Below, piece after piece: positions 2,009-24,807 of a DNA stretch of 52,061 nucleotides. This DNA is from a virus. The position numbers and the translations under genes are program-made. Each line of letters begins with the position of its first letter. The first letter of the stretch is position 1. The notes below the pieces were generated by a model that was given only the letters and a program-made list of their open reading frames with translations, was not told the DNA's origin and made no database searches. Location: positions 1-52,061 of the IMG/VR virus record IMGVR_UViG_3300032053_011941. One strand, written 5' to 3'.

Positions 2009-2770
2009 ATGAAGATTAAATGTATTTGTAATGGAAAAGTATATTTATTTTGGGAAAAAATACAAAATACTGAATATAATATTTATAAATGTGAAAAATG
2101 TGGTATTTTAGTTTGTGATAGAATATTGGAAGATATTGAAAAAATATATACAGATGATGATTTATATCATATAAAAGAACAATTAAAAATTGGTCATATC
2201 CCATATAAAGATAGATTTGATAATGATTATCAAATAGCAAAGACAAGAATAGATAATTTAAAAACTGCTTTATCAATTCAAACATTTATTGGAAAAAGAA
2301 TATTAGATGTCGGATGCTCTAATGGGGCATTTTTGAAATATTGTTTTGATAATGGAATGATTATAAATGGAATAGAACCAAATGAAAATATTGCTAAATT
2401 TGCAATTTCAAAATTAAATTCTAATTGTATAGATATAAATTTATTAGAAAATACAAATTTTAATAGTAATTTATTTGATTTTATTTTTATGCATGATTTA
2501 ATTGAGCATTTTAAGAGCCCAAAATTGGCATTACATATAATAAAAGCTCTATGCAAAAAAGATGGGTGTTTAATTATAGATACACCAAATACTGATTCAA
2601 TAGATTTTAAAGAAAAACAACAAAATTGGAAACATATAAGACCATTAGAACATATATGGTATTTTAATCCAGAACAATTATCTAATGTATTAAATAAAAT
2701 AGGATTTGAAATAATTCATATTGATTATCCATTAGAAGGCAAATTTGTTATATATTCAAAATTGAAATGA
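2009..2770 (+). CDS. SAM-dependent methyltransferase with N-terminal zinc-ribbon-like region
   Basis: 253 residues. Motif I of class I methyltransferases is clear as ILDVGCSNGAFL near residue 95, and FDFIFMHDLIEHFKSP marks the post-motif region typical of the methyltransferase type 11/12 families. The N-terminal 35 residues hold two cysteine pairs (CxC and CEKCG), as in sugar C-/O-methyltransferases that carry a small Zn-binding segment. Probably methylates a sugar or glycan made by the surrounding glycosyltransferases. The gene follows the GT2 gene after GGAAAA and precedes the tandem GT gene by 9 bases. Confidence 0.8.
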   Translation: MKIKCICNGKVYLFWEKIQNTEYNIYKCEKCGILVCDRILEDIEKIYTDDDLYHIKEQLKIGHIPYKDRFDNDYQIAKTRIDNLKTALSIQTFIGKRILDVGCSNGAFLKYCFDNGMIINGIEPNENIAKFAISKLNSNCIDINLLENTNFNSNLFDFIFMHDLIEHFKSPKLALHIIKALCKKDGCLIIDTPNTDSIDFKEKQQNWKHIRPLEHIWYFNPEQLSNVLNKIGFEIIHIDYPLEGKFVIYSKLK

Positions 2771-2779
2771 AAATGAATA

Positions 2780-4672
2780 ATGATAAAGATAGAAAAAAAA
2801 GTAATAAATCCAAATAAAAAATATGATAAGAAAATAATATTATCATGTTGTTTTTTTAAATTGGGTGATAAGATAGTTTCAGAGTCATGCATTAGAGAAT
2901 ATATTAGACGCAATCCAAATCATTATGTTATAGTAACTGAATTAGATGAATTTATAAATTCTTTAAAAATGGAAGATATTGTAGAAGCAGATGAATTTTG
3001 GACAATAAAAGGGTATGGAGAAAATACAAGATCACAATTTATAAACAAATTTATTTATGAAGCATTCCAAGATAATGTAAATTATATTAAAACATATCAC
3101 AGTGGTTTATATGATGAATTAAGAAAAATAAGAGTTGAAAGAAGTTGTGTTTTCTTAGAAAATAATGAATTAAGAAAAGCTGAAATTTTTCCAAGATTTA
3201 AAATAAAAAATGAATATATTAATTGGCTACATGGATGCCATAAATTTTTAAAATTAGATAAAGATAAAATAAGAATATGCTTTCATTTTAGAAATTGCAA
3301 TAGTTCTACTATTAGAAATGTTGACCCAGAAATATATGGAAAATTTGCATTAAAACTAAAAGAATATGGATTCGAAATAATAAATGTTGGTTCAAAAGAA
3401 GATTTAAATTTAGATTTAAATAAATATGAAATAATTGATTTTTCAAAAGATAATTTATCTGTTAATAAAACAGCAGTATTAATTTCGACATGTGATTTAT
3501 ATATCGGAGGTGAAACTGGAACGACAATGTTAGCTGCTGCAATTGGAATACCAATTATCGCAATTAGTTACATTAATACACATGCTTTACCATATACAAA
3601 AAATTGTAGAATAGAATTTAAAAAAGATCATGATCCGACATTTAAACAATTATTTAAATATGTAAATGAATTGATTAATCGAAAAATTGAAATAAATAGA
3701 ATAGAACAGATTATTAAAAATAGAATAATTAAGAAATCATATAATAAAGAAAAAATTGATAAATGTATAATTACAGCATGTAATTTTCAATTGGGTGATA
3801 AAATCGTATCAGAATTGTATTTTAGAAAATTTAGAGAACAAAATCCAAATACTCATTGTATATTATTGGAGACAACTAGAGATATTAAAACATTTAGTTT
3901 ATTTAATTTATCTCTTTTTGATGAACATTGGGTAATTGAAGGAAATATAGATTTTGAATTACTTCTTTCTAATTTAATAAGCAATAAAATAGATAGATTT
4001 ATATCTTTACAAACTGGATTTGGGTATTTTTATGATAAAGTTAAAGAATTCAATGAAATATCAATTTTTAATTTTGCAAATAGTTATAAAATAAGAAAAA
4101 TTTATCCAATTTTTAATTTGGAAAATTGTTATATTGAATGGGCGAAGAATAATCCAAAATTTAGATACAATAAAGGAAGAAAAATAATATGTTTTCATAT
4201 TAGAAATATAGATAGAGATATTTTTAGAAATATGGATTGCAATTTGTATATTGATATTATGAAAACATTAAAAAAATATAATTTTGAAGTTATTAATATT
4301 GGTTCTTTAGAAGATGATGAAATTCCATTTGATGAATATCAAATTGTTGATTTTTCAAAAGATAATTTAAATGTGTTTCAAACTGCAGCGTTAATTAAAT
4401 TATCAAATTTATTTGTTGGAGGTGAAACTGGAACAACAATGTTGGCAGCTTCACTTAACGTTCCAATAGTAGCAAGTAGTTATGTCAATAAGAATGTTAT
4501 ACCATATATAGATAGTAAAAAATGTAATATCATATTTAAAGGTAAAAATGGAAATGGATATACTGAACCAAATAAAAATATAATTCTAAATTCAATATTA
4601 AATATGTTAAATTATAATACAAATTTAAATTATAATAGTAATGTAAATGAAATGATAAGGATGGTAATGTGA
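2780..4672 (+). CDS. Tandem-duplicated GT-B glycosyltransferase (GT9/heptosyltransferase-like)
   Basis: 630 residues made of two homologous halves of about 310 residues. Each half ends with the same signature, GGETGTTMLAAA (near residue 241) and GGETGTTMLAAS (near residue 547), which matches the donor-binding G-G-x-x-S/T-G region of ADP-heptose:LPS heptosyltransferase-like GT-B enzymes. Each half also has an internal DFSKDNL segment and starts with a CxFxLGDKIVSE pattern. Single-domain members are about 330 residues, so this is a head-to-tail fusion of two copies. Its stop overlaps the GTG start of the next gene. Substrates are unknown; two transfers by one polypeptide is a reasonable inference. 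Confidence 0.7.
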   Translation: MIKIEKKVINPNKKYDKKIILSCCFFKLGDKIVSESCIREYIRRNPNHYVIVTELDEFINSLKMEDIVEADEFWTIKGYGENTRSQFINKFIYEAFQDNVNYIKTYHSGLYDELRKIRVERSCVFLENNELRKAEIFPRFKIKNEYINWLHGCHKFLKLDKDKIRICFHFRNCNSSTIRNVDPEIYGKFALKLKEYGFEIINVGSKEDLNLDLNKYEIIDFSKDNLSVNKTAVLISTCDLYIGGETGTTMLAAAIGIPIIAISYINTHALPYTKNCRIEFKKDHDPTFKQLFKYVNELINRKIEINRIEQIIKNRIIKKSYNKEKIDKCIITACNFQLGDKIVSELYFRKFREQNPNTHCILLETTRDIKTFSLFNLSLFDEHWVIEGNIDFELLLSNLISNKIDRFISLQTGFGYFYDKVKEFNEISIFNFANSYKIRKIYPIFNLENCYIEWAKNNPKFRYNKGRKIICFHIRNIDRDIFRNMDCNLYIDIMKTLKKYNFEVINIGSLEDDEIPFDEYQIVDFSKDNLNVFQTAALIKLSNLFVGGETGTTMLAASLNVPIVASSYVNKNVIPYIDSKKCNIIFKGKNGNGYTEPNKNIILNSILNMLNYNTNLNYNSNVNEMIRMVM

Positions 4673-5454
4673 AACCAATTGCAATTATTACACAAACTTA
4701 TAATAGATTAAATTTTACAATGGAATGTTTAAGTAGCATATTTGCTAGAACGAGATATCCTTATAAATTAATTGTTATAGATAATGCATCAACAGATGGA
4801 ACAAGAGAATATTTGAAATTTTTACATAATAAAAGTTTAATAGATAAATTAATATTAAATGAAACAAATATGGGTATAGGACACCCAAAGAATCAAGGTT
4901 ATACATCTATTGATAAAGAATGTGATGAAAGATATTTTATATTAACAGATTCTGATATTGTTTTTCCAATGACAAAAAATGATTGTTGGTTGACCCATTT
5001 AATAAAATTAATGGAAGAACAAAGCAAAACTTTAGCAATGATTTCAGTAGATTTAGATCCAATTAATGGAACGCATGATTTAGATTGGTGGTTTAAAGGA
5101 AAAAGACAACATTTTGTTGTTGGAAGCAAATTAAGAGAATTTGCTGAAATATCAACTGGTTTTCACGGTTCTTTAATAAAACGGAAAGATTGGGAAGAAT
5201 ATGGAGGAGCATGGATATCTGAAACTTCTACATATGGGCGTGTAGATGAACATTTTAGAAATTGGGTTTATAGAAATAGAAAAGGTAAAATAGGAGTTTG
5301 GAAAGGAGAGAATCTTGGGGATGGTAATGTGATACCAAGATATGGAGTGCATCTTGGATGGAGTGACCCAACTTTATTTTATGATTATCATATTTTTAAA
5401 AAACAAGAAAGAGAAAAAGTAAATCAAGAATGGAATATAAGAGGTATTAAATAA
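4669..5454 (+). CDS. Family 2 glycosyltransferase (GTG start)
   Basis: 261 residues. IAIITQTYNRLNFTMECLSS and VIDNASTDGT form the nucleotide-binding half of the GT-A fold, and LTDSDIVFP is the DxD metal site near residue 100. A downstream STGFHGSLIKR and the aromatic C-terminal half resemble lipooligosaccharide-type GT2 enzymes. The GTG start overlaps the preceding TGA in GTGA, suggesting translational coupling with the tandem GT gene. The stop overlaps the ATG of the following methyltransferase. No membrane anchor is visible. Acceptor unknown. Confidence 0.85.
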   Translation: MKPIAIITQTYNRLNFTMECLSSIFARTRYPYKLIVIDNASTDGTREYLKFLHNKSLIDKLILNETNMGIGHPKNQGYTSIDKECDERYFILTDSDIVFPMTKNDCWLTHLIKLMEEQSKTLAMISVDLDPINGTHDLDWWFKGKRQHFVVGSKLREFAEISTGFHGSLIKRKDWEEYGGAWISETSTYGRVDEHFRNWVYRNRKGKIGVWKGENLGDGNVIPRYGVHLGWSDPTLFYDYHIFKKQEREKVNQEWNIRGIK

Positions 5455-6005
5455 TGGAAACAAGAAGCAAAAGATGCCTTCAGATTTTTACAACTATTTA
5501 TGGTTTATTGGGGGATATTATTGAACTTGGATGTAGTAGTGGGCATACCACCATAGAATTAGCAAAATTTATAAAAGAGTATAAATTAAAAAAGAAAATT
5601 TATGCTTATGATACTTTTGAAGGCTTACCATATCAAAGTGGAGAATTAAATGCAGATTTGAAAAAAGGTGAATGTAAATGTTCTTTAGAACAATTTAATA
5701 AGAATATTATAGAAAATAAAGTTGAAAACATAATAATTCCTGTAAAAGGGCTAATTGAAGATACTCTTAAATCAAATGTAAATTTTTTTTGTTTTGCTTG
5801 GTTTGATTTAGATTTATATGAATCGACTCTATTTGCTTATAAAGAAATAGAAAATAAAATTGTGCATAATGGAATAATTGGTTTTCATGATTATGGTTTT
5901 TTTCGTTGTCCAGGAATTAAAAAAATTGTTGACAATGATATCAATAAAGATAAGTTTAAAATTTATAACATTATAGATTCTTGTATATTCTTAAAAAGGA
6001 TTTAA
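5454..6005 (+). CDS. TylF/MycF-type O-methyltransferase
   Basis: 183 residues, somewhat short for the family. IIELGCSSGHTTIELA is the SAM-binding motif I near residue 22. AYDTFEGLP is the acidic strand-2 motif, and FAWFDLDLYESTLFA followed by GFHDYG gives the metal-binding aspartates of the macrocin O-methyltransferase (TylF) family. Known members methylate sugar hydroxyls, which fits a glycan locus. The ATG overlaps the stop of the GT2 gene, and the next gene starts one base after the stop, so the unit is tightly coupled. Confidence 0.8.
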   Translation: METRSKRCLQIFTTIYGLLGDIIELGCSSGHTTIELAKFIKEYKLKKKIYAYDTFEGLPYQSGELNADLKKGECKCSLEQFNKNIIENKVENIIIPVKGLIEDTLKSNVNFFCFAWFDLDLYESTLFAYKEIENKIVHNGIIGFHDYGFFRCPGIKKIVDNDINKDKFKIYNIIDSCIFLKRI

Positions 6006-6006
6006 C

Positions 6007-7050
6007 ATGAAATATGCTTTTTTAGTAGATAATTATAGAGATTTAATATTCTATGAAGATGTCATAAAAAAAGACTTTATTCCAGTTAATATTTTTTGGG
6101 ACAATCAAACCAAAGAAAAAGAATTAAAAAATGAAATAAATATATATGTTCCAAATATTGCGCTTCAATTAAGCAGAGATAAAAATTTTTTAGGATTTAA
6201 ATATGATTTAGATCATGATTTTATTTTGGAATTTTATTATAAAATGTATAATAATAATTTTTATAAATTTGGAATAGATTTGATGGCACGTATAAACTAT
6301 TTATATCCTTATTTTAATGATTTGATAAAAGAAAATGATATTGTAATTTCAACTAATTCTGGTTGTTGGTTTTCAAGATTATTATGTGAAATATGTAAAA
6401 ATAAAAATGCTACATTCTATTTTTTCGAAAATTTCTTTTTTCGTAATAATTTTCAAATTAGTAAAATACCATTTACAAATTCAAAATATGGTTTTCCTGA
6501 ATTAAATAGATTATTTTATGAATCAGAATACAATAATGATGATATAGATTTTTATTATAAATATATTAAAAATAGAATATCTAAATATGAACAAGAAGAT
6601 TATGATATAGAAAAAGACTATGATATTTTTATAGTTGGGCAAATTCCAGATGATACTAATGTAATATTATTAGACAAACCATATAAAAATTCAGAAGAAT
6701 TATGTTATCAAATTGCAAAATTAAATCCACATTTAAATATAATATATAAACTACATCCTTTATTAAAGGAGAGAGGTTTTTTTATTGATAATAAAGTACT
6801 TGAATTAGAAAATGTATTTGTAACAACTAAAGCATCAATTCATAATATTTTTAATAAGGTAAAAGAAGTATATACTATAAGCTCAACTGTTGGGATAGAA
6901 GCTCAATTATTTGATAAAAAAGTTAAATGGTTTTCAGATACAACTTATAAAGATTTTAATTTAGAAAAAAAAGAAAATACGTATAAATTTATAAATGCCT
7001 GTAGAAAATATATGTTCGAACTTGAGGATTTATGGACAAAAATAAAGTAA
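6007..7050 (+). CDS. Capsule-polysaccharide-type GT-B glycosyltransferase-like protein
   Basis: 347 residues. The C-terminal half holds IIYKLHPLL and, about 45 residues later, YTISSTVGIEAQLF. The HP and S-S-x-x-x-x-E pairs are characteristic of the donor-binding site of capsule/Kdo/sialyl-type GT-B transferases. The N-terminal half is aromatic and not recognisable to me. No transmembrane segment. It closes the first glycosyltransferase run; the next gene starts inside its last 19 bases. Function inferred from these motifs only. Confidence 0.6.
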   Translation: MKYAFLVDNYRDLIFYEDVIKKDFIPVNIFWDNQTKEKELKNEINIYVPNIALQLSRDKNFLGFKYDLDHDFILEFYYKMYNNNFYKFGIDLMARINYLYPYFNDLIKENDIVISTNSGCWFSRLLCEICKNKNATFYFFENFFFRNNFQISKIPFTNSKYGFPELNRLFYESEYNNDDIDFYYKYIKNRISKYEQEDYDIEKDYDIFIVGQIPDDTNVILLDKPYKNSEELCYQIAKLNPHLNIIYKLHPLLKERGFFIDNKVLELENVFVTTKASIHNIFNKVKEVYTISSTVGIEAQLFDKKVKWFSDTTYKDFNLEKKENTYKFINACRKYMFELEDLWTKIK

Positions 7051-11654: not shown

Positions 11655-12635
11655 ATGAAGAGTAGAGTTTTTATTACAGGAGTGACTGGGCAGGATGGTT
11701 TTATACTTTCAAAATATCTATTAGAAGAATGTGAAAATTATATAGTTTATGGTTTAATTAGAAGAGTTTCTAATCATAATGAAAGAATTGATGAATTAGA
11801 AAAGTTAGGAGTAGAAATTGTTGAAGGAGATATAACTGATTTATCTTCTTTAATAAGAAGTTTAAAAATAATAAGACCAGATTTTATATATGGTTTTGCA
11901 GCTCAATCTCATGTTAGAAAATCATTTGAAGAGCCAATTAGTACTTTTAATATAACTGCAGGTGGTGTTATAAATTGTTTAGAAGCTATAAGAACTATTG
12001 ATAAAAATATAAGATATTACCAATCCAGTAGTTCCGAACAATTTGGAAAAGCACAAGAAATACCACAAAAAGAAACAACAATTTTTTATCCTCGGAGTCC
12101 TTATTCATGCTCGAAAGTATTTGGATATTGGATCACAAAGAATTATAGAGAAAGTTATGGAATTTTTGCTAGTAATGGAATTTTATTCAACCACGAATCA
12201 GAATATCGTGGTATAAATTTTGTAACTCGTAAAATAACTGATGGAGTTGCAAAAATAAAATATGGTTTGATCGATAAATTAGAATTAGGAAATTTAGATT
12301 CAGAACGAGATTGGATGTATGCTAAAGACGCCGTGATTGGTGCAAAATTAATTTTAGAACATACAGAACCAGATGATTTTATTTTATGTAGTGGGGAGAA
12401 ACATTCAGTAAGAGAATTTTGTGATATATGCTTTAAAAAAGTTGGTTTGGGTGATTATAAAAAATATGTAATTTCTAATCCAAAATATATGAGACCAGCA
12501 GAAGTTGATGTTTTGATTGGGGATTATACAAAAGCTAAAAATAAGCTTAATTGGAAACCAAAAACTTCATTTGAAGAAATGGTTGATATTATGTTAAAAT
12601 ATGATTTGAAAAAATATGAGAATAAGGGGAAATAA
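11655..12635 (+). CDS. gmd: GDP-mannose 4,6-dehydratase
   Basis: 326 residues, slightly shorter than cellular GMD (about 345-370). FITGVTGQDGFILSKYLL is the NADP-binding glycine loop. The catalytic serine region SSSSEQFGKAQEIPQ, the YxxxK (Y150, K154 in SPYSCSK) and NGILFNHESEYRG, FVTRKIT and SERDWMYAKDAV are all diagnostic of GMD. It makes GDP-4-keto-6-deoxymannose, the precursor of fucose, rhamnose and related sugars. It sits between a GT4 gene and a fibre gene four bases downstream, so it could feed decoration of virion or host-surface glycan. Confidence 0.9.
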   Translation: MKSRVFITGVTGQDGFILSKYLLEECENYIVYGLIRRVSNHNERIDELEKLGVEIVEGDITDLSSLIRSLKIIRPDFIYGFAAQSHVRKSFEEPISTFNITAGGVINCLEAIRTIDKNIRYYQSSSSEQFGKAQEIPQKETTIFYPRSPYSCSKVFGYWITKNYRESYGIFASNGILFNHESEYRGINFVTRKITDGVAKIKYGLIDKLELGNLDSERDWMYAKDAVIGAKLILEHTEPDDFILCSGEKHSVREFCDICFKKVGLGDYKKYVISNPKYMRPAEVDVLIGDYTKAKNKLNWKPKTSFEEMVDIMLKYDLKKYENKGK

Positions 12636-17411: not shown

Positions 17412-18284
17412 ATGTCGGAAAAGATTCTTATTACTGGGTCAAAAGGTAGAATTGGTAAAGAAATTTTGGATTTAAGTGATACTCAAGAAAATGAAGTAAT
17501 TCCAGTAGATATAGAAGATTTTGATTTAAAAAATATTGCAGATATAAATGCAATGTTTAAAGAAATAAACCCGACAATTGTAATACATACTGCTGGTTTT
17601 ACAGATATTGAAAAAGCAGAACAAAATGAAGATGAATGTATGGCAGTTAATTATGAAGCTACCAAAAAAATGGTAGAAAATTCTATACGTGAAAATGTTA
17701 AAAAATTTGTTTTTATATCTACTTGTCATGTATTTGATGGAGTAAAACAAGATTCATATACAGAAAGAGATGAATGCAGACCAATAAATATTTTTGGTAT
17801 GTCAAAATGGAAAGCAGAACAAGAAGTTTTAAGATTAGATAATAGAGCAATAATAATAAGACCTTCTGAAATATTTGGTGAAGGATATGGGAATTATTAT
17901 TCTGATAGAATATTAAATTTTATAAGACAAGATTCAAAAGAAAATATAAATGTAATAAATGATGAAACTTTTAATCCTACGTATAGTGTTGATTTAGCTT
18001 ATGCAGTTAAAGTTATAGTTAACCATACAAATACAAGAGGCATATTTCATGTAGTTAATGAAGGAACTTCTAATTGGTATGATTTTGCGAAAAGAGCAAT
18101 TGAATATAGTAATTCTAATAAAAAAGCTATTCCGATGTCAAGTGAACAATATACTTCAATTGCGAAAAGGCCGAAAAACAGAACTTTAAGTGGAATACGG
18201 ACTTTACATTATACAGGAGTAAAATTGAGAAGTTGGGAAAGTGCTCTTGAGGATTACATTTATTTGTTAAAGGAGAATATTTAA
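17412..18284 (+). CDS. RmlD-like NDP-sugar reductase with Tyr-to-Phe change
   Basis: 290 residues, usual length for dTDP-4-dehydrorhamnose reductase. ILITGSKGRIGKEI is the NAD(P) glycine loop; HTAGFTDIEKAE and FISTCHVFDG match RmlD's TAVDKAE and ST-VFDG motifs; RPSEIFGEG follows. The catalytic YxxxK position reads IFGMSK, so Phe128 replaces the tyrosine while Lys132 stays. It may be inactive, use another residue, or bind sugar nucleotide without reducing it. GGAGATGAAAA precedes the start. It lies apart from the main glycan locus. Confidence 0.75.
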   Translation: MSEKILITGSKGRIGKEILDLSDTQENEVIPVDIEDFDLKNIADINAMFKEINPTIVIHTAGFTDIEKAEQNEDECMAVNYEATKKMVENSIRENVKKFVFISTCHVFDGVKQDSYTERDECRPINIFGMSKWKAEQEVLRLDNRAIIIRPSEIFGEGYGNYYSDRILNFIRQDSKENINVINDETFNPTYSVDLAYAVKVIVNHTNTRGIFHVVNEGTSNWYDFAKRAIEYSNSNKKAIPMSSEQYTSIAKRPKNRTLSGIRTLHYTGVKLRSWESALEDYIYLLKENI

Positions 18285-19969: not shown

Positions 19970-21277
19970 ATGCAAACAATTAAATTACCAATTCAAAATC
20001 TATCAAAAGAAAATATTTCTTTTATCAAAGAAATTCAAAGACAACAATCAATTGTAATTAGATTTGCTTACAATAGATTTTCTGAAAATAAATCTGAAAA
20101 AGAAATTAGACTTCTTGTCAAAAAGTTAAATCAAATTAACTTTTTAGATTCTTGGCTTATACAGTCAGCAATTAAAGAAGCAGAACAAATTTATAAATCT
20201 TCAAAAGATAAAACTATTTTATTTGGTGGAAAATTAAATTGGTTAAATTATATCAAAAAGAAAATTTCAAAAGAAAAATTTAAAGAAAATAGATTGAAAG
20301 ATATTGTAATTCAAGGTGAAGCTTCAAAAACTGGAAATAGAAAATTTGAATTAAATATTGATGATAATTCAATCTTATTTAAATTCAACAAAAACAATCA
20401 TATTGAATTGAAACTCCCAAAATTAAGAAAAAATTATTTTAAACTTCTTTCAAAATTACAAGTTCTTGCTGAAAATAAAGAAGTTTCATATTCAATAAAA
20501 TTAGATCCAGAATTTATTTATATTTCTTTTGAAGAATTTAAAAAAGAAGAAACCATTTTAAATAAAAACAGAGTTTTTGGAATAGATATGAATCCAAATT
20601 CAATTGGATATTCTATTCTGCAATTTGATAAAGAAAATAATTATAAAGTTATTAATTCAGGAATTATAAATATTTCTAATTTAACAAAAGATTTAAAAGT
20701 TTCTTCTGATAACCCAAAACAAATTTATCAAAATAATAAAAGAGAATTTGAATCTTTTGAAATATGTAAGTTGTTAGTTAACAAAACGAAAGAATTTAAT
20801 TGTAGTAAATTTATTGCTGAAGATTTAGAATTTAAAATCAAAGATAAAAAATTTGGGAATAAATTTAATCGTTTAGTAAATAATATCTGGAATATAAACA
20901 AATTTCAAAATAATTTGAATAAAAGATGTAATATTGAAGGAATTGAATTTGTTAAAATTAATCCAGCATATTCTAGTTTTATTGGGAATTTAGAAAATAT
21001 AAATTATCCTGATCCAATTTCAGCATCAATAGAAATTGGAAGAAGAGGATATAAAAAATTTGAAAAGAATTGGTTCTATCCAAAATTAAATGTTGAAAAT
21101 TTAAAGAACCTATGGAAGGAAGAAATAAATTGGAGTTTAATTAAGGATTGGAAACAACTTTTTGAACAAATAAAAAACTTGAAATTGAAGTATCGAGTTT
21201 CTTTAGATTTATCAAAATTTAAAGTTTTTAGAAATAAATGTGAAAGATCCTTGGTGGATCTTTTATGTTTTGTATAG
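19970..21277 (+). CDS. TnpB-like RuvC nuclease without zinc finger
   Basis: 435 residues. The split RuvC site is intact: GIDMNPNSIGYSIL (Asp near 206), FIAEDLEF (Glu near 284) and YPDPISASIEIGRRGY (Asp near 348). The NPAYSSFIGNL segment matches the NPxxTSxxC of TnpB, but the CxxC pairs of the zinc finger normally found between RuvC-II and RuvC-III are absent and that interval is short (about 64 residues). No TnpA lies nearby. TnpB proteins are RNA-guided DNA nucleases; here it may act in homing-like fashion in a phage. No ribosome-binding site is obvious. Confidence 0.75.
   Translation: MQTIKLPIQNLSKENISFIKEIQRQQSIVIRFAYNRFSENKSEKEIRLLVKKLNQINFLDSWLIQSAIKEAEQIYKSSKDKTILFGGKLNWLNYIKKKISKEKFKENRLKDIVIQGEASKTGNRKFELNIDDNSILFKFNKNNHIELKLPKLRKNYFKLLSKLQVLAENKEVSYSIKLDPEFIYISFEEFKKEETILNKNRVFGIDMNPNSIGYSILQFDKENNYKVINSGIINISNLTKDLKVSSDNPKQIYQNNKREFESFEICKLLVNKTKEFNCSKFIAEDLEFKIKDKKFGNKFNRLVNNIWNINKFQNNLNKRCNIEGIEFVKINPAYSSFIGNLENINYPDPISASIEIGRRGYKKFEKNWFYPKLNVENLKNLWKEEINWSLIKDWKQLFEQIKNLKLKYRVSLDLSKFKVFRNKCERSLVDLLCFV
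21244..21262 (+). other. Hairpin at the 3' end of the TnpB-like gene
   Basis: AAAGATCC and GGATCTTT form an 8-bp stem around TTGGT, overlapping the last codons. IS200/IS605-type ends and TnpB guide RNAs often end in such stems near the gene's 3' end. Whether a guide RNA is made here is unproven. Confidence 0.45.
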
Positions 21278-21453: not shown

Positions 21454-22860
21454 ATGGCAGTTCTCCGTAGAGGACAAGACACAACTAGTAGTGATATCAA
21501 CATCCTTTTTGCTATCGGCGGGCACCCGCAAGATCCTGTTGAAGTCTATTATGCTTTATATTATGTAGATAATAATGGACATGAATATTTATTAGATAAT
21601 ATAGCACAAAGAATTCCAGTACGTTATGACGTTGGAAAGTATTATGTTCCATATCATATCCCAATTGATGCTGAAATTGGAAAATATTTAGTAAAATGGA
21701 TGTATAGACCAACAAGTGAATCTGCATTTAGACAAGAATGTGATGAATGGTATGTTGTAGCCGAAACAACTCAAATAGTTACTACATATAATGATACAGA
21801 ATTAGTAGCAATTAGAGATATGAGAATAGTGCTACGCGATAACAACCCCGATAAAAATTATAGTTGTTCTGGTGATGCCAGATTGAATTTGAAAGTAAAA
21901 GATGAAATTATAAATATTACAATTAAAGAATTATATGACATCATTAATAATATGGGCCAAAAAGAAAAAATAAAAAATGCATTTAAAAACAAACAACTTT
22001 TTGTACAATCATCTTCCATTAATAAAAAAGTTGAATGGAAATTAATAAATGATGTTTTAAAACATGATATTAAAGATGAAAAAGTTTATTATATTAAAAC
22101 AGAAAAAGGAAAAGAAATAAAAGTTACTGGAAGCCATTCATTATTTATTTTAAGCAATAGTCAGATAATTCCAATTATGACTAAATTTTTAAATAAATCT
22201 TTAGTTGTAATTGAAAATAATGAAATAATTGAAGAAAAAATAGAAACAATTGAAGAAACAAAATATGAAAAATATATGTATGATTTGTCTGTAGAAGATA
22301 ATCATAATTTTGTTATAAATAATGGAATTCTTGCACATAATTCATTTGCTCCTCCTAAATCAGAATGTGCAGTTGCAGGTTTTACAGAAAGGCATGGTTA
22401 TCTTTGGACTGATGAAGAATTGATGGAGTTTATTTATATTGGAGTTGAACAAGTTAATTTATTACCAAAAGCACCAAAAATACATACACTTGATTCAATA
22501 TATAATCAAGATAAACAATGGATACCAATATTAAAAGCAGCAGCTGCGGTTTGGGCATTAAGTGCAATGGCAACTAATTGGGCAGAAGAACAGTTTTCCT
22601 ATAGTCTCAATGGCATATCTCTTGAATTAAATAAATTTGATATGTATATGCAATTGAAAGCTAATTTAGAAGATAGATATGACAAATTCTCTGAGAGATA
22701 CATTCAGAAAAATAATATGATGTTGGGAGTGAGACCAAGTGCTTATGTATTAGGAGTTGGTAGAGGTGGAAGTGGATTACATTTAGGACCTTATACTACA
22801 GGTTTGAATCCGGCAAATTACATTAGGGCTCTTTCTTTAACTGGATTTAAATATGTATAA
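21454..22860 (+). CDS. Virion structural protein interrupted by a mini-intein
   Basis: 468 residues as translated, 309 after removal of a 159-residue intein. AAAGGAG precedes the ATG. Extein N-part (1-137) is an Ig-like beta domain with MAVLRRGQDTTSSDINILF and GKYLVKWMYRPTSESAFRQE. Extein C-part (from residue 297) is helical, with GYLWTDEELMEFIYIGVEQV, an alanine-rich WIPILKAAAAVWALSAMA and a C-terminal GVGRGGSGLHLGPY. I infer a connector or tail-associated virion protein from size and context. The gene's first codons and the codons just before the intein are richer in G+C than the rest. Confidence 0.7.
   Translation: MAVLRRGQDTTSSDINILFAIGGHPQDPVEVYYALYYVDNNGHEYLLDNIAQRIPVRYDVGKYYVPYHIPIDAEIGKYLVKWMYRPTSESAFRQECDEWYVVAETTQIVTTYNDTELVAIRDMRIVLRDNNPDKNYSCSGDARLNLKVKDEIINITIKELYDIINNMGQKEKIKNAFKNKQLFVQSSSINKKVEWKLINDVLKHDIKDEKVYYIKTEKGKEIKVTGSHSLFILSNSQIIPIMTKFLNKSLVVIENNEIIEEKIETIEETKYEKYMYDLSVEDNHNFVINNGILAHNSFAPPKSECAVAGFTERHGYLWTDEELMEFIYIGVEQVNLLPKAPKIHTLDSIYNQDKQWIPILKAAAAVWALSAMATNWAEEQFSYSLNGISLELNKFDMYMQLKANLEDRYDKFSERYIQKNNMMLGVRPSAYVLGVGRGGSGLHLGPYTTGLNPANYIRALSLTGFKYV
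21865..22341 (+). other. Mini-intein (159 residues, no endonuclease domain)
   Basis: Begins at Cys138 with CSGDARLNLKVK (splicing block A), has VTGSHSLFI (block B with the T-x-x-H type motif), MYDLSVEDNHNFVINN (block F) and ends ILAHN followed by Ser (block G, +1 nucleophile). All residues needed for protein splicing appear present. The intein is in frame, and no LAGLIDADG or HNH endonuclease is inserted. The next gene is a free-standing homing endonuclease, which could mobilise it in trans. Confidence 0.9.
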
Positions 22861-22980
22861 TGTAATAAGTTATAAAAAATTTTTTTCAAAGTAATTAAGT
22901 CCTGAACCTGTATATTTTTTTATTTACAAAATAAAATTTATTTTATAAATTTCTTTTTAATAATAAAAGGAATTTAAAAA

Positions 22981-24807
22981 ATGAATGATGTAAATGTAGA
23001 AGAATTAAAAAATCATGTATTATCAATAAAGCGTATAGTAAAACTCCCAAAAGAAATTCAAGATATAATAATTCAAAAAACTTCTTTTCTTCCAGAATCA
23101 GCAAAATTTGGAATTCGTAAATTTTCTATTTTAAATGATATTAAAGAAATGCCTTTATGCCCAATATGTAAAAATCCGGTTAGATTTGATAAATATTTTA
23201 AGGTTTTATGTGAAAAATGCGAAGGAACTGAAGAAGGTAAAAAAGCAAAACAAAAACGCTATGAAGAGACATTTGCAAAAAATCATAATGGATGTACTAA
23301 TCCATATCAATTAGAAAAGACAAAAGAAACTACAAAAAATACTTTTCGTAAAAATTATGATGCTGATCATTATATGAAATCCGAAAAAGGAAAAAATGAT
23401 TTAAAAAAAGTTTTTGAAGATAAATATGGTAAAGGAATAGTAAATCCATGGCAAATTCCAAAAGTTAAAGAAGATATAGTTCAAAAAAATTTAAAAAATT
23501 ATAAAGTTAAATGTGTATTACAATTGCCAGAAAATAGAAAAAAATTGAATGAAGTTTTAGCAACTCAAGAACATAAAGATAAGAAAAAACAAATATGTAT
23601 AGATAAATATGGAGTTGATTCAACTTTGCAACTACCACATGTTAGAAAGAGAACTATTGAAGTAACTTCATCCCAAGAAATAAAAGATAAAATAAAAATT
23701 TCAAGAAGAAAATCATATTGGAATATATTTGTAAAATTGCTTAAAATTAAAAATATTGAGCCGTTATTTGATAAAGAATATTATTGTAATTTGGAAAACA
23801 AATCATATAAATATAAATGTTTAGAGTGCAATGATAATTTTGAGATTGAATATCATCATCCACAAAATATATATTGTTATAAACATGCATCTGGTTCTGA
23901 ACCAGAATTTGAAATTGGTGAGTTTGTTAAAAGCTTAGGAGTTGAAATAGAATGTAATAAGTTAATTCAAATCAATGATGAAAGCAATAAATGTCACGAA
24001 TTAGATATTCTAGTATCAAAATTTAATTTTGGTATTGAACATGATGGATTACTTTGGCACAGTTTCAATAGAAAAGATTATCATATAAATAGAACATTGT
24101 TTTTTAAAGAAAAAGGAATTGATATAATACATATTTTTGGTAATGAATGGATAAGTAAAAGACAAATAGTAGAGTCAATAATTAAAGTAAAATTAAATAA
24201 ATATGATTCAAAAATTTTTGCTAGAGAATGCGAAATTAAAGAAACTAAATTAGAATTATCTAAAGAATTTCTTGAAACAAATCATTTACAAGGTTATACT
24301 CCATCTAAATATTATATTGGATTATTTTATAATAATGAATTGGTTCAATTATTGACATTTGGAAAGTCCAGGTTTAATAAAAATTATGAATATGAACTTT
24401 TGCGTTCTTGTTCTAAATTAAATACAATAGTTGTAGGTGGGTTTGAAAGATTATTAAATTATTTTGAGAAAACATATAACCCAAAATCAATAATAACATA
24501 TTCAGATTTAAGATATTTTAATGGTAATAGTTATTTAAAAGCCGGTTTTGTATTTAGTCATAGAACTGAACCAGATTATTTTTATTTTAAAGATTGGAAA
24601 TCTCATAATTGTATTTTATATCATAGAACTTTATTTCAAAAACATAAATTAGCATCTAAATTGGAAATGTTTGATCCAAATAAATCTGAATTTGAGAATA
24701 TGATTGATAATGGATATTTAAGAATTTATGATTGTGGTAACAATGTATTTATAAAACAATATGAAAATGAAAAAGGAGAAACAAAATGTATGGAATCAAA
24801 AAGTTAA
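22981..24807 (+). CDS. Free-standing EDxHD/Vsr-like homing endonuclease
   Basis: 608 residues. N-terminal zinc ribbon (CPICKNPVRF, CEKC near residue 70), then three or four repeats of a KYGVxNxxQ type DNA-contact module (about 95-235), then the nuclease core with HELDILVSKFNFGIEHDGLL and WHS (about 340-365), matching the E-D-x-H-D residues of I-Bth0305I-type enzymes. A C-terminal domain (IFARECEI, NHLQGYTPSKYYIGLFYNNE, YSDLRYFNG) is shared by many phage endonucleases of this class. AAAGGAA precedes the start. Likely drives spread of the adjacent intein or of itself. Confidence 0.8.
   Translation: MNDVNVEELKNHVLSIKRIVKLPKEIQDIIIQKTSFLPESAKFGIRKFSILNDIKEMPLCPICKNPVRFDKYFKVLCEKCEGTEEGKKAKQKRYEETFAKNHNGCTNPYQLEKTKETTKNTFRKNYDADHYMKSEKGKNDLKKVFEDKYGKGIVNPWQIPKVKEDIVQKNLKNYKVKCVLQLPENRKKLNEVLATQEHKDKKKQICIDKYGVDSTLQLPHVRKRTIEVTSSQEIKDKIKISRRKSYWNIFVKLLKIKNIEPLFDKEYYCNLENKSYKYKCLECNDNFEIEYHHPQNIYCYKHASGSEPEFEIGEFVKSLGVEIECNKLIQINDESNKCHELDILVSKFNFGIEHDGLLWHSFNRKDYHINRTLFFKEKGIDIIHIFGNEWISKRQIVESIIKVKLNKYDSKIFARECEIKETKLELSKEFLETNHLQGYTPSKYYIGLFYNNELVQLLTFGKSRFNKNYEYELLRSCSKLNTIVVGGFERLLNYFEKTYNPKSIITYSDLRYFNGNSYLKAGFVFSHRTEPDYFYFKDWKSHNCILYHRTLFQKHKLASKLEMFDPNKSEFENMIDNGYLRIYDCGNNVFIKQYENEKGETKCMESKS

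What the first reader, a model, noticed from the sequence alone, without database searches (positions are those of the whole stretch)
21454..24807. Mini-intein and free-standing EDxHD homing endonuclease side by side
The intein lacks an endonuclease domain but has all splicing motifs; 640 bases downstream is a 608-residue Vsr-like homing endonuclease. This is the arrangement expected for collaborative homing, in which a separate endonuclease cuts intein-free alleles of the neighbouring gene and carries the intein along.
Basis: partly seen in the sequence, partly recalled or inferred. Interest (0 to 1): 0.7.

Follow-up and report, generated by a model that had tools for sequence, protein, structure and literature searches.

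The report
Mini-intein beside a homing endonuclease gene
A phage structural gene carries a small self-splicing protein insert with no DNA-cutting part and is followed by a separate DNA-cutting gene; both are real, but relatives show that this gene attracts such elements in all combinations, so a dedicated partnership is not shown.

Summary
The virion gene at 21454-22860, a head-tail-connector-like protein, contains a contiguous 160-residue mini-intein with all splicing motifs. It starts at Ser137 (21862), not at the Cys given, and joins NY|SFAPP in the most conserved motif of the gene. A 608-residue EDxHD endonuclease with a Mom-like C-terminal domain follows at 22981-24807.

Collaborative homing is only partly supported. 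I collected about 150 connector genes from other large phages. No close relative of the window was found, so an intein-free or endonuclease-free sister could not be compared. EDxHD-type endonucleases sit directly downstream of 24 of 89 intein-free connector genes, and of 6 of 7 genes fractured by split inteins six codons upstream of the window's site. The enrichment weakens or vanishes when kinship is counted. All four combinations occur among relatives. One endonuclease-bearing, intein-free phage keeps an almost unchanged empty intein site. Window-type endonucleases elsewhere are not next to this gene.

The best reading is a homing hot spot: an endonuclease-free intein and an independent free-standing endonuclease, with the intein able to hitchhike by co-conversion. 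Strict collaborative homing, with cleavage at the intein site, stays possible (about 0.2). The notable by-product is eight atypically split inteins in this gene.

The parts
21454..21861 (+). N-extein of the connector-like virion gene (residues 1-136, ends ...DNNPDKNY)
   Evidence: homologue Tunturi_5 ORF319 annotated head-tail connector
21862..22341 (+). mini-intein, 160 aa, Ser1 ... His159-Asn160; block B VTGSH, block F/G MYDLSVEDNHNF...ILAHN; no endonuclease domain
22342..22860 (+). C-extein, Ser+1 then FAPP; with the N-extein it restores the conserved LRDNNPDKNY-S-FAPP motif
22981..24807 (+). free-standing EDxHD homing endonuclease, 608 aa
   Evidence: phrog_3339 7e-109; profile match to I-Bth0305I 3r3p
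23254..23550 (+). DUF7487-like helical repeat region of the endonuclease (probable DNA-binding arm), shared with connector-adjacent endonucleases of relatives
   Evidence: Pfam PF24308 3.9e-7; same family in L119 and L010 enzymes
23902..24180 (+). EDxHD nuclease core of the endonuclease (residues about 308-400; conserved D342, E353, H360)
24217..24750 (+). C-terminal Mom-like GNAT-fold domain of the endonuclease
   Evidence: 8bv8 by profile E 0.0024 and by fold E 1e-5

Best explanation
The connector gene is a homing hot spot. In the window it carries two separately acquired mobile elements. The first is a splicing-competent but endonuclease-free Ser1 mini-intein in its most conserved motif. 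The second is a free-standing EDxHD endonuclease parked in the downstream intergenic space. After translation the intein should excise itself and restore the connector. In mixed infections the endonuclease most likely cuts a site in or near the connector region of relatives that lack it, and repair copies the endonuclease gene with flanking DNA. Because the intein lies only 0.6 kb upstream, it can hitchhike in the same co-conversion tract even if the cut is not at its insertion site. Shown: both elements, their boundaries, the independent comings and goings of such elements in relatives, and their AT-rich base composition. Inferred: splicing, cleavage and co-conversion.
For: Independent occurrence: of de-duplicated connector loci, 24 of 89 intein-free and 6 of 7 intein-split genes have a downstream EDxHD-type endonuclease. 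Intein presence changes at least 6 times and endonuclease presence at least 22 times on the gene tree. Near relatives L018 (neither), L024 (endonuclease only) and L119 (both) share 85-88% identical C-halves, with the endonuclease as similar between L024 and L119 as the connector gene is (about 85%), so it persists without the intein. L130 has a split intein and no downstream endonuclease; L066 has a mini-intein at a third site and none. Window-type endonucleases elsewhere are not beside connector genes. T4 free-standing endonucleases cut hundreds to thousands of bases from their own gene and co-convert flanks (PMC2988022).
Against: Split-intein genes are enriched for the downstream endonuclease before correction for kinship. 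The comparative evidence comes from related but not identical endonuclease subfamilies and from phages that share only about 35% connector identity with the window. No cleavage site is known, and pairwise comparison of endonuclease-positive and -negative relatives showed no localised tract that would mark one.
Confidence: 0.6

Rival explanations
1. Strict collaborative (trans) homing: the free-standing endonuclease recognises the unoccupied intein site in the connector gene, cuts intein-free alleles and moves itself and the intein together, while the intein protects the resident genome.
For: Layout; intein without its own endonuclease; the insertion sits in the most conserved motif of the gene; an EDxHD enzyme is described with a target of nearly 60 bp (PMC3943268), enough to span both intein sites, which are about 18 nt apart; enrichment 6/7 against 24/89; L137 has the same logic, a split intein with no nuclease between its halves plus a downstream endonuclease.
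Against: Many endonuclease-positive phages lack any intein; L024 has an intact endonuclease motif and an empty site nearly identical to that of endonuclease-free L018; association not significant on independent tree pairs; window-type endonucleases are not tied to this gene.
Confidence: 0.2
2. Turnover remnant: the intein once had its own nuclease (as in the fractured relatives) and lost it; the present free-standing endonuclease arrived later at the same hot spot and has no role in intein mobility.
For: Homologous inteins in relatives have a TnsA-like PD-(D/E)xK or HNH nuclease gene between the halves, and in L137 that nuclease is gone. PMC10448857 proposes endonuclease turnover as the origin of such layouts with introns.
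Against: The window intein is contiguous, at a different site (6 codons downstream), only 18-25% identical to the split inteins, and shows no remnant of a nuclease.
Confidence: 0.15
3. Not an active intein: a Hint domain fused to a virion protein, with no splicing.
For: No splicing assay was possible; Ser1/Ser+1 inteins are uncommon (about 5%, PMC11766414).
Against: All catalytic motifs are present and the joined exteins restore exactly the length and motif of the intein-free homologues.
Confidence: 0.03

Closest known systems
Collaborative homing (intron with neighbouring free-standing endonuclease: T3 and T7-like phages, a cyanophage, ICP1 terminase) and trans homing (MobE with the T4 nrdB intron)
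   Same: A splicing element without a working endonuclease beside a free-standing endonuclease gene near the same essential phage gene (PMC10448857, PMC2988022)
   Different: Here the splicing element is an intein, the nuclease is EDxHD, the cleavage site is unknown, and relatives do not show a fixed pairing
[quoted passage not shown] 2009, NAR; cited; the text is not held, so its content is from my own knowledge)
   Same: Inteins and EDxHD-type endonucleases at the same phage gene; relatives L010, L119, L130, L146, L165, L176 and L180 are fractured connector genes with a nuclease gene just before the second half
   Different: The window gene is not fractured and its endonuclease lies outside the gene; in the relatives the nuclease between the halves is TnsA-like PD-(D/E)xK or HNH, and the EDxHD enzyme lies downstream
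Atypically split inteins AceL-TerL and GOS-TerL
   Same: The relatives' split inteins have short N-fragments (about 29-37 aa) and large C-fragments, as GOS-TerL (IntN 37 aa, PMC11766414)
   Different: Different host gene (connector, not TerL); the window intein itself is contiguous
I-Bth0305I (EDxHD intron endonuclease, PDB 3r3p)
   Same: Nuclease core (profile E 8.7e-5)
   Different: Window enzyme is free-standing, with DUF7487-like repeats and a C-terminal Mom-like domain

Membership tests
Intein (contiguous mini-intein) | Hint splicing domain with N-terminal nucleophile, block B Thr-x-x-His, block F, C-terminal His-Asn and Cys/Ser/Thr at +1 | tested here: met
   Ser1, VTGSH, HN, Ser+1
Intein (contiguous mini-intein) | Removal restores an intact host protein | tested here: met
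   joined exteins match the ungapped motif of intein-free homologues
Intein (contiguous mini-intein) | Self-splicing activity | not testable with these tools
   needs expression assay
EDxHD homing endonuclease | EDxHD/Vsr-like nuclease core | tested here: met
   3r3p profile match E 8.7e-5; conserved D342, E353, H360
EDxHD homing endonuclease | Site-specific cleavage of an allele lacking the element | not testable with these tools
   needs in vitro cleavage
Collaborative homing pair | Endonuclease-free splicing element beside a free-standing endonuclease | tested here: met
Collaborative homing pair | Endonuclease cleaves at the insertion site of the splicing element | not testable with these tools
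   no cleavage data; no close relative for co-conversion mapping
   24 of 89 intein-free connector loci have an EDxHD-type endonuclease downstream; these are distant relatives with related enzymes
Collaborative homing pair | Endonuclease-bearing genomes without the intein have an altered target site | tested here: inconclusive
   L018 against L024: 1 difference in 58 nt spanning both intein sites, which speaks against it; but one pair, a related enzyme, and an assumed site
Fractured gene (split intein with endonuclease between the halves) | Host gene split in two ORFs by a split intein and a nuclease gene | tested here: not met
   window gene is one ORF; the feature is met in seven relatives

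The most novel reading that the evidence does not exclude
An intein version of collaborative homing: the free-standing EDxHD enzyme cuts the conserved connector motif that both intein sites interrupt, so that any intein in this motif is mobilised and protected by it, and the enzyme's Mom-like domain contributes to target recognition or self-protection.
Probability: 0.17. Interest if true: 0.75.

Novelty: new variant of a known kind. Interest (0 to 1): 0.5.

Why it matters
If the pair works together, an intein could spread without its own endonuclease, which would explain how mini-inteins persist in phages. Even if not, this connector gene has two neighbouring intein sites, contiguous and split forms, nuclease genes inside and downstream, and empty alleles in near relatives. 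That makes the order of gain and loss of inteins and free-standing endonucleases directly testable, and it supplies new natural split inteins with short N-fragments.

Tried and rejected
Close relatives of the window were sought with the whole precursor, with extein alignments, in bacterial genomes and in named phages. A search for other inteins at exactly the same site (DNNPD[RK]NY followed by Ser/Cys) in all IMG/VR contigs found none. Sliding identity between endonuclease-positive and -negative relatives shows no localised divergent tract marking a cut site. A guide-like match between the TnpB-like gene's downstream region and the joined extein was sought and not found. Host-gene function rests on a single annotation (Tunturi_5 head-tail connector); PHROGs and Pfam give nothing for the exteins.

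Full report
What is there. The window is a 52,061-base IMG/VR virus contig. ORF 21454-22860 is a virion protein interrupted by a mini-intein, and ORF 22981-24807 is a free-standing endonuclease. The interrupted protein resembles Tunturiibacter phage Tunturi_5 ORF319, annotated as a head-tail connector, and an interrupted gene of the 485-kb uncultured phage LR745208.

Boundary. The intein hits Pfam Intein_splicing at 1.6e-17 and the N- and C-terminal intein models. The N-terminal model places position 1 at residue 137. Intein-free homologues read LRDNNPDRNY[HRK]FRPP with exactly one residue between Tyr and Phe. The intein therefore starts with Ser137 (21862), spans 160 residues to Asn296 (22341), and joins NY|SFAPP. 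Ser1/Ser+1 is an uncommon but known combination (PMC11766414).

Endonuclease. The 608-aa protein is phrog_3339 (7e-109). A profile of ten relatives matches I-Bth0305I (3r3p, 8.7e-5) in its nuclease core and phage Mu Mom (8bv8, 0.0024) in its C-terminal part. The predicted model (mean pLDDT 74) matches Mom by fold at 1e-5. DUF7487-like repeats precede the core and also occur in the endonucleases beside other connector genes.

Relatives. Two scans gave about 150 connector-gene loci, some of them duplicates. Most are intact. Seven (L010, L119, L130, L137, L146, L165, L176) are fractured at LRD[NQ]|[SC]PD, six codons upstream of the window's site. The N-half ends in a short IntN of about 29-37 residues, then comes a nuclease gene (TnsA-like PD-(D/E)xK type, or HNH in L146; none in L137), then a large IntC with the rest of the connector. 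An eighth, L180 in a bacterial bin, has its C-half and N-half about 67 kb apart on opposite strands of one contig. L066 has a mini-intein at a third site near the C-terminus. The window intein is homologous to these but only 18-29% identical.

Is the endonuclease tied to the intein? EDxHD-type endonucleases stand directly downstream of the connector gene in 6 of 7 fractured loci and in 24 of 89 intein-free ones (Fisher p=0.0035; the one mini-intein locus L066 is counted among the 89). With stricter de-duplication and the bacterial-bin loci the figures are 5 of 7 against 25 of 88 (p=0.03; here the window is counted in the second group). On the gene tree the intein state changes 6 times and the endonuclease state 22 times, and independent pairs give no significant link. 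So the same gene attracts both; a specific partnership is suggested but not established.

A natural series argues against strict dependence. L018 (neither element), L024 (endonuclease only) and L119 (both) are near relatives. The endonuclease genes of L024 and L119 are about as similar as their connector genes, and L024's nuclease motif is intact. L024's empty intein region differs from L018's at 1 of 58 bases. If the enzyme cut there and only an intein protected the genome, L024 should not persist. Caveats: this is one pair, the enzyme belongs to a related subfamily, and the cut site is unknown.

The window's enzyme belongs to a subfamily normally found elsewhere. Of 88 loci with its relatives none has a connector gene within the 5-6 kb held on each side (some loci are shorter). 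In one clade (L059, L060, L062) such an enzyme lies about 3.8 kb upstream of an intein-free connector gene, on the other strand. One locus (L245) has a window-type endonuclease directly downstream of an intein-bearing terminase gene, a second case of the same neighbourhood in a different gene.

Mechanism. Free-standing phage endonucleases cut hundreds to thousands of bases from their own gene and spread by co-conversion of the flanks (PMC2988022). The window intein, 0.6 kb away, would be carried along wherever the cut falls nearby. That gives the practical outcome of collaborative homing without requiring cleavage at the intein site. Strict collaborative homing, defined as cleavage at the insertion sequence (PMC10448857), remains possible and is directly testable. 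An alternative in the same paper, endonuclease turnover, fits the fractured relatives and L137.

Verdict.

Noticed in passing
L010, L119, L130, L137, L146, L165, L176: Connector genes fractured by atypically split inteins (short IntN about 29-37 aa) at one conserved site, with a TnsA-like PD-(D/E)xK or HNH nuclease gene between the halves in all but L137.
   Followed up: partly
L180 (5554-6525) and L262 (1489-1980, minus strand): In one 155-kb contig of a bacterial bin the two halves of the split-intein connector gene lie about 67 kb apart on opposite strands, with the nuclease gene next to the C-half; either long-range trans-splicing or an assembly fault.
   Followed up: partly
19970-21277: TnpB-like protein (TIGR01766 8e-7) with apparent RuvC Asp-Glu-Asp residues but no zinc-finger cysteines, directly upstream of the connector gene, so that the gene is bracketed by two nuclease genes. 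An 18-nt perfect inverted match links it to the connector gene (21013-21030 and 21664-21681), possibly chance.
   Followed up: partly
24217-24750: Mom-like GNAT-fold domain fused behind the EDxHD nuclease core; the architecture recurs in relatives of this endonuclease.
   Followed up: partly
8416, 13810, 18990, 19640, 25481, 27048, 28294: Seven reading frames share a start like M-x-S-N-x-I-R-K-[MI]-A-x-K-I, perhaps a common leader or virion-targeting segment.
   Followed up: no
L245 1156-5930: Terminase-like gene with inteins directly followed by a window-type EDxHD endonuclease.
   Followed up: no
L066 2-1336: Connector gene with a mini-intein at a third site near its C-terminus, apparently without a canonical Cys/Ser start, and no endonuclease in the 5 kb downstream.
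   Followed up: no
2009-7050, 11655-12635 and 17412-18284: Sugar-metabolism genes in the virus contig: methyltransferase, glycosyltransferase, capsule-synthesis-like, GDP-mannose dehydratase and RmlD-like genes.
   Followed up: no
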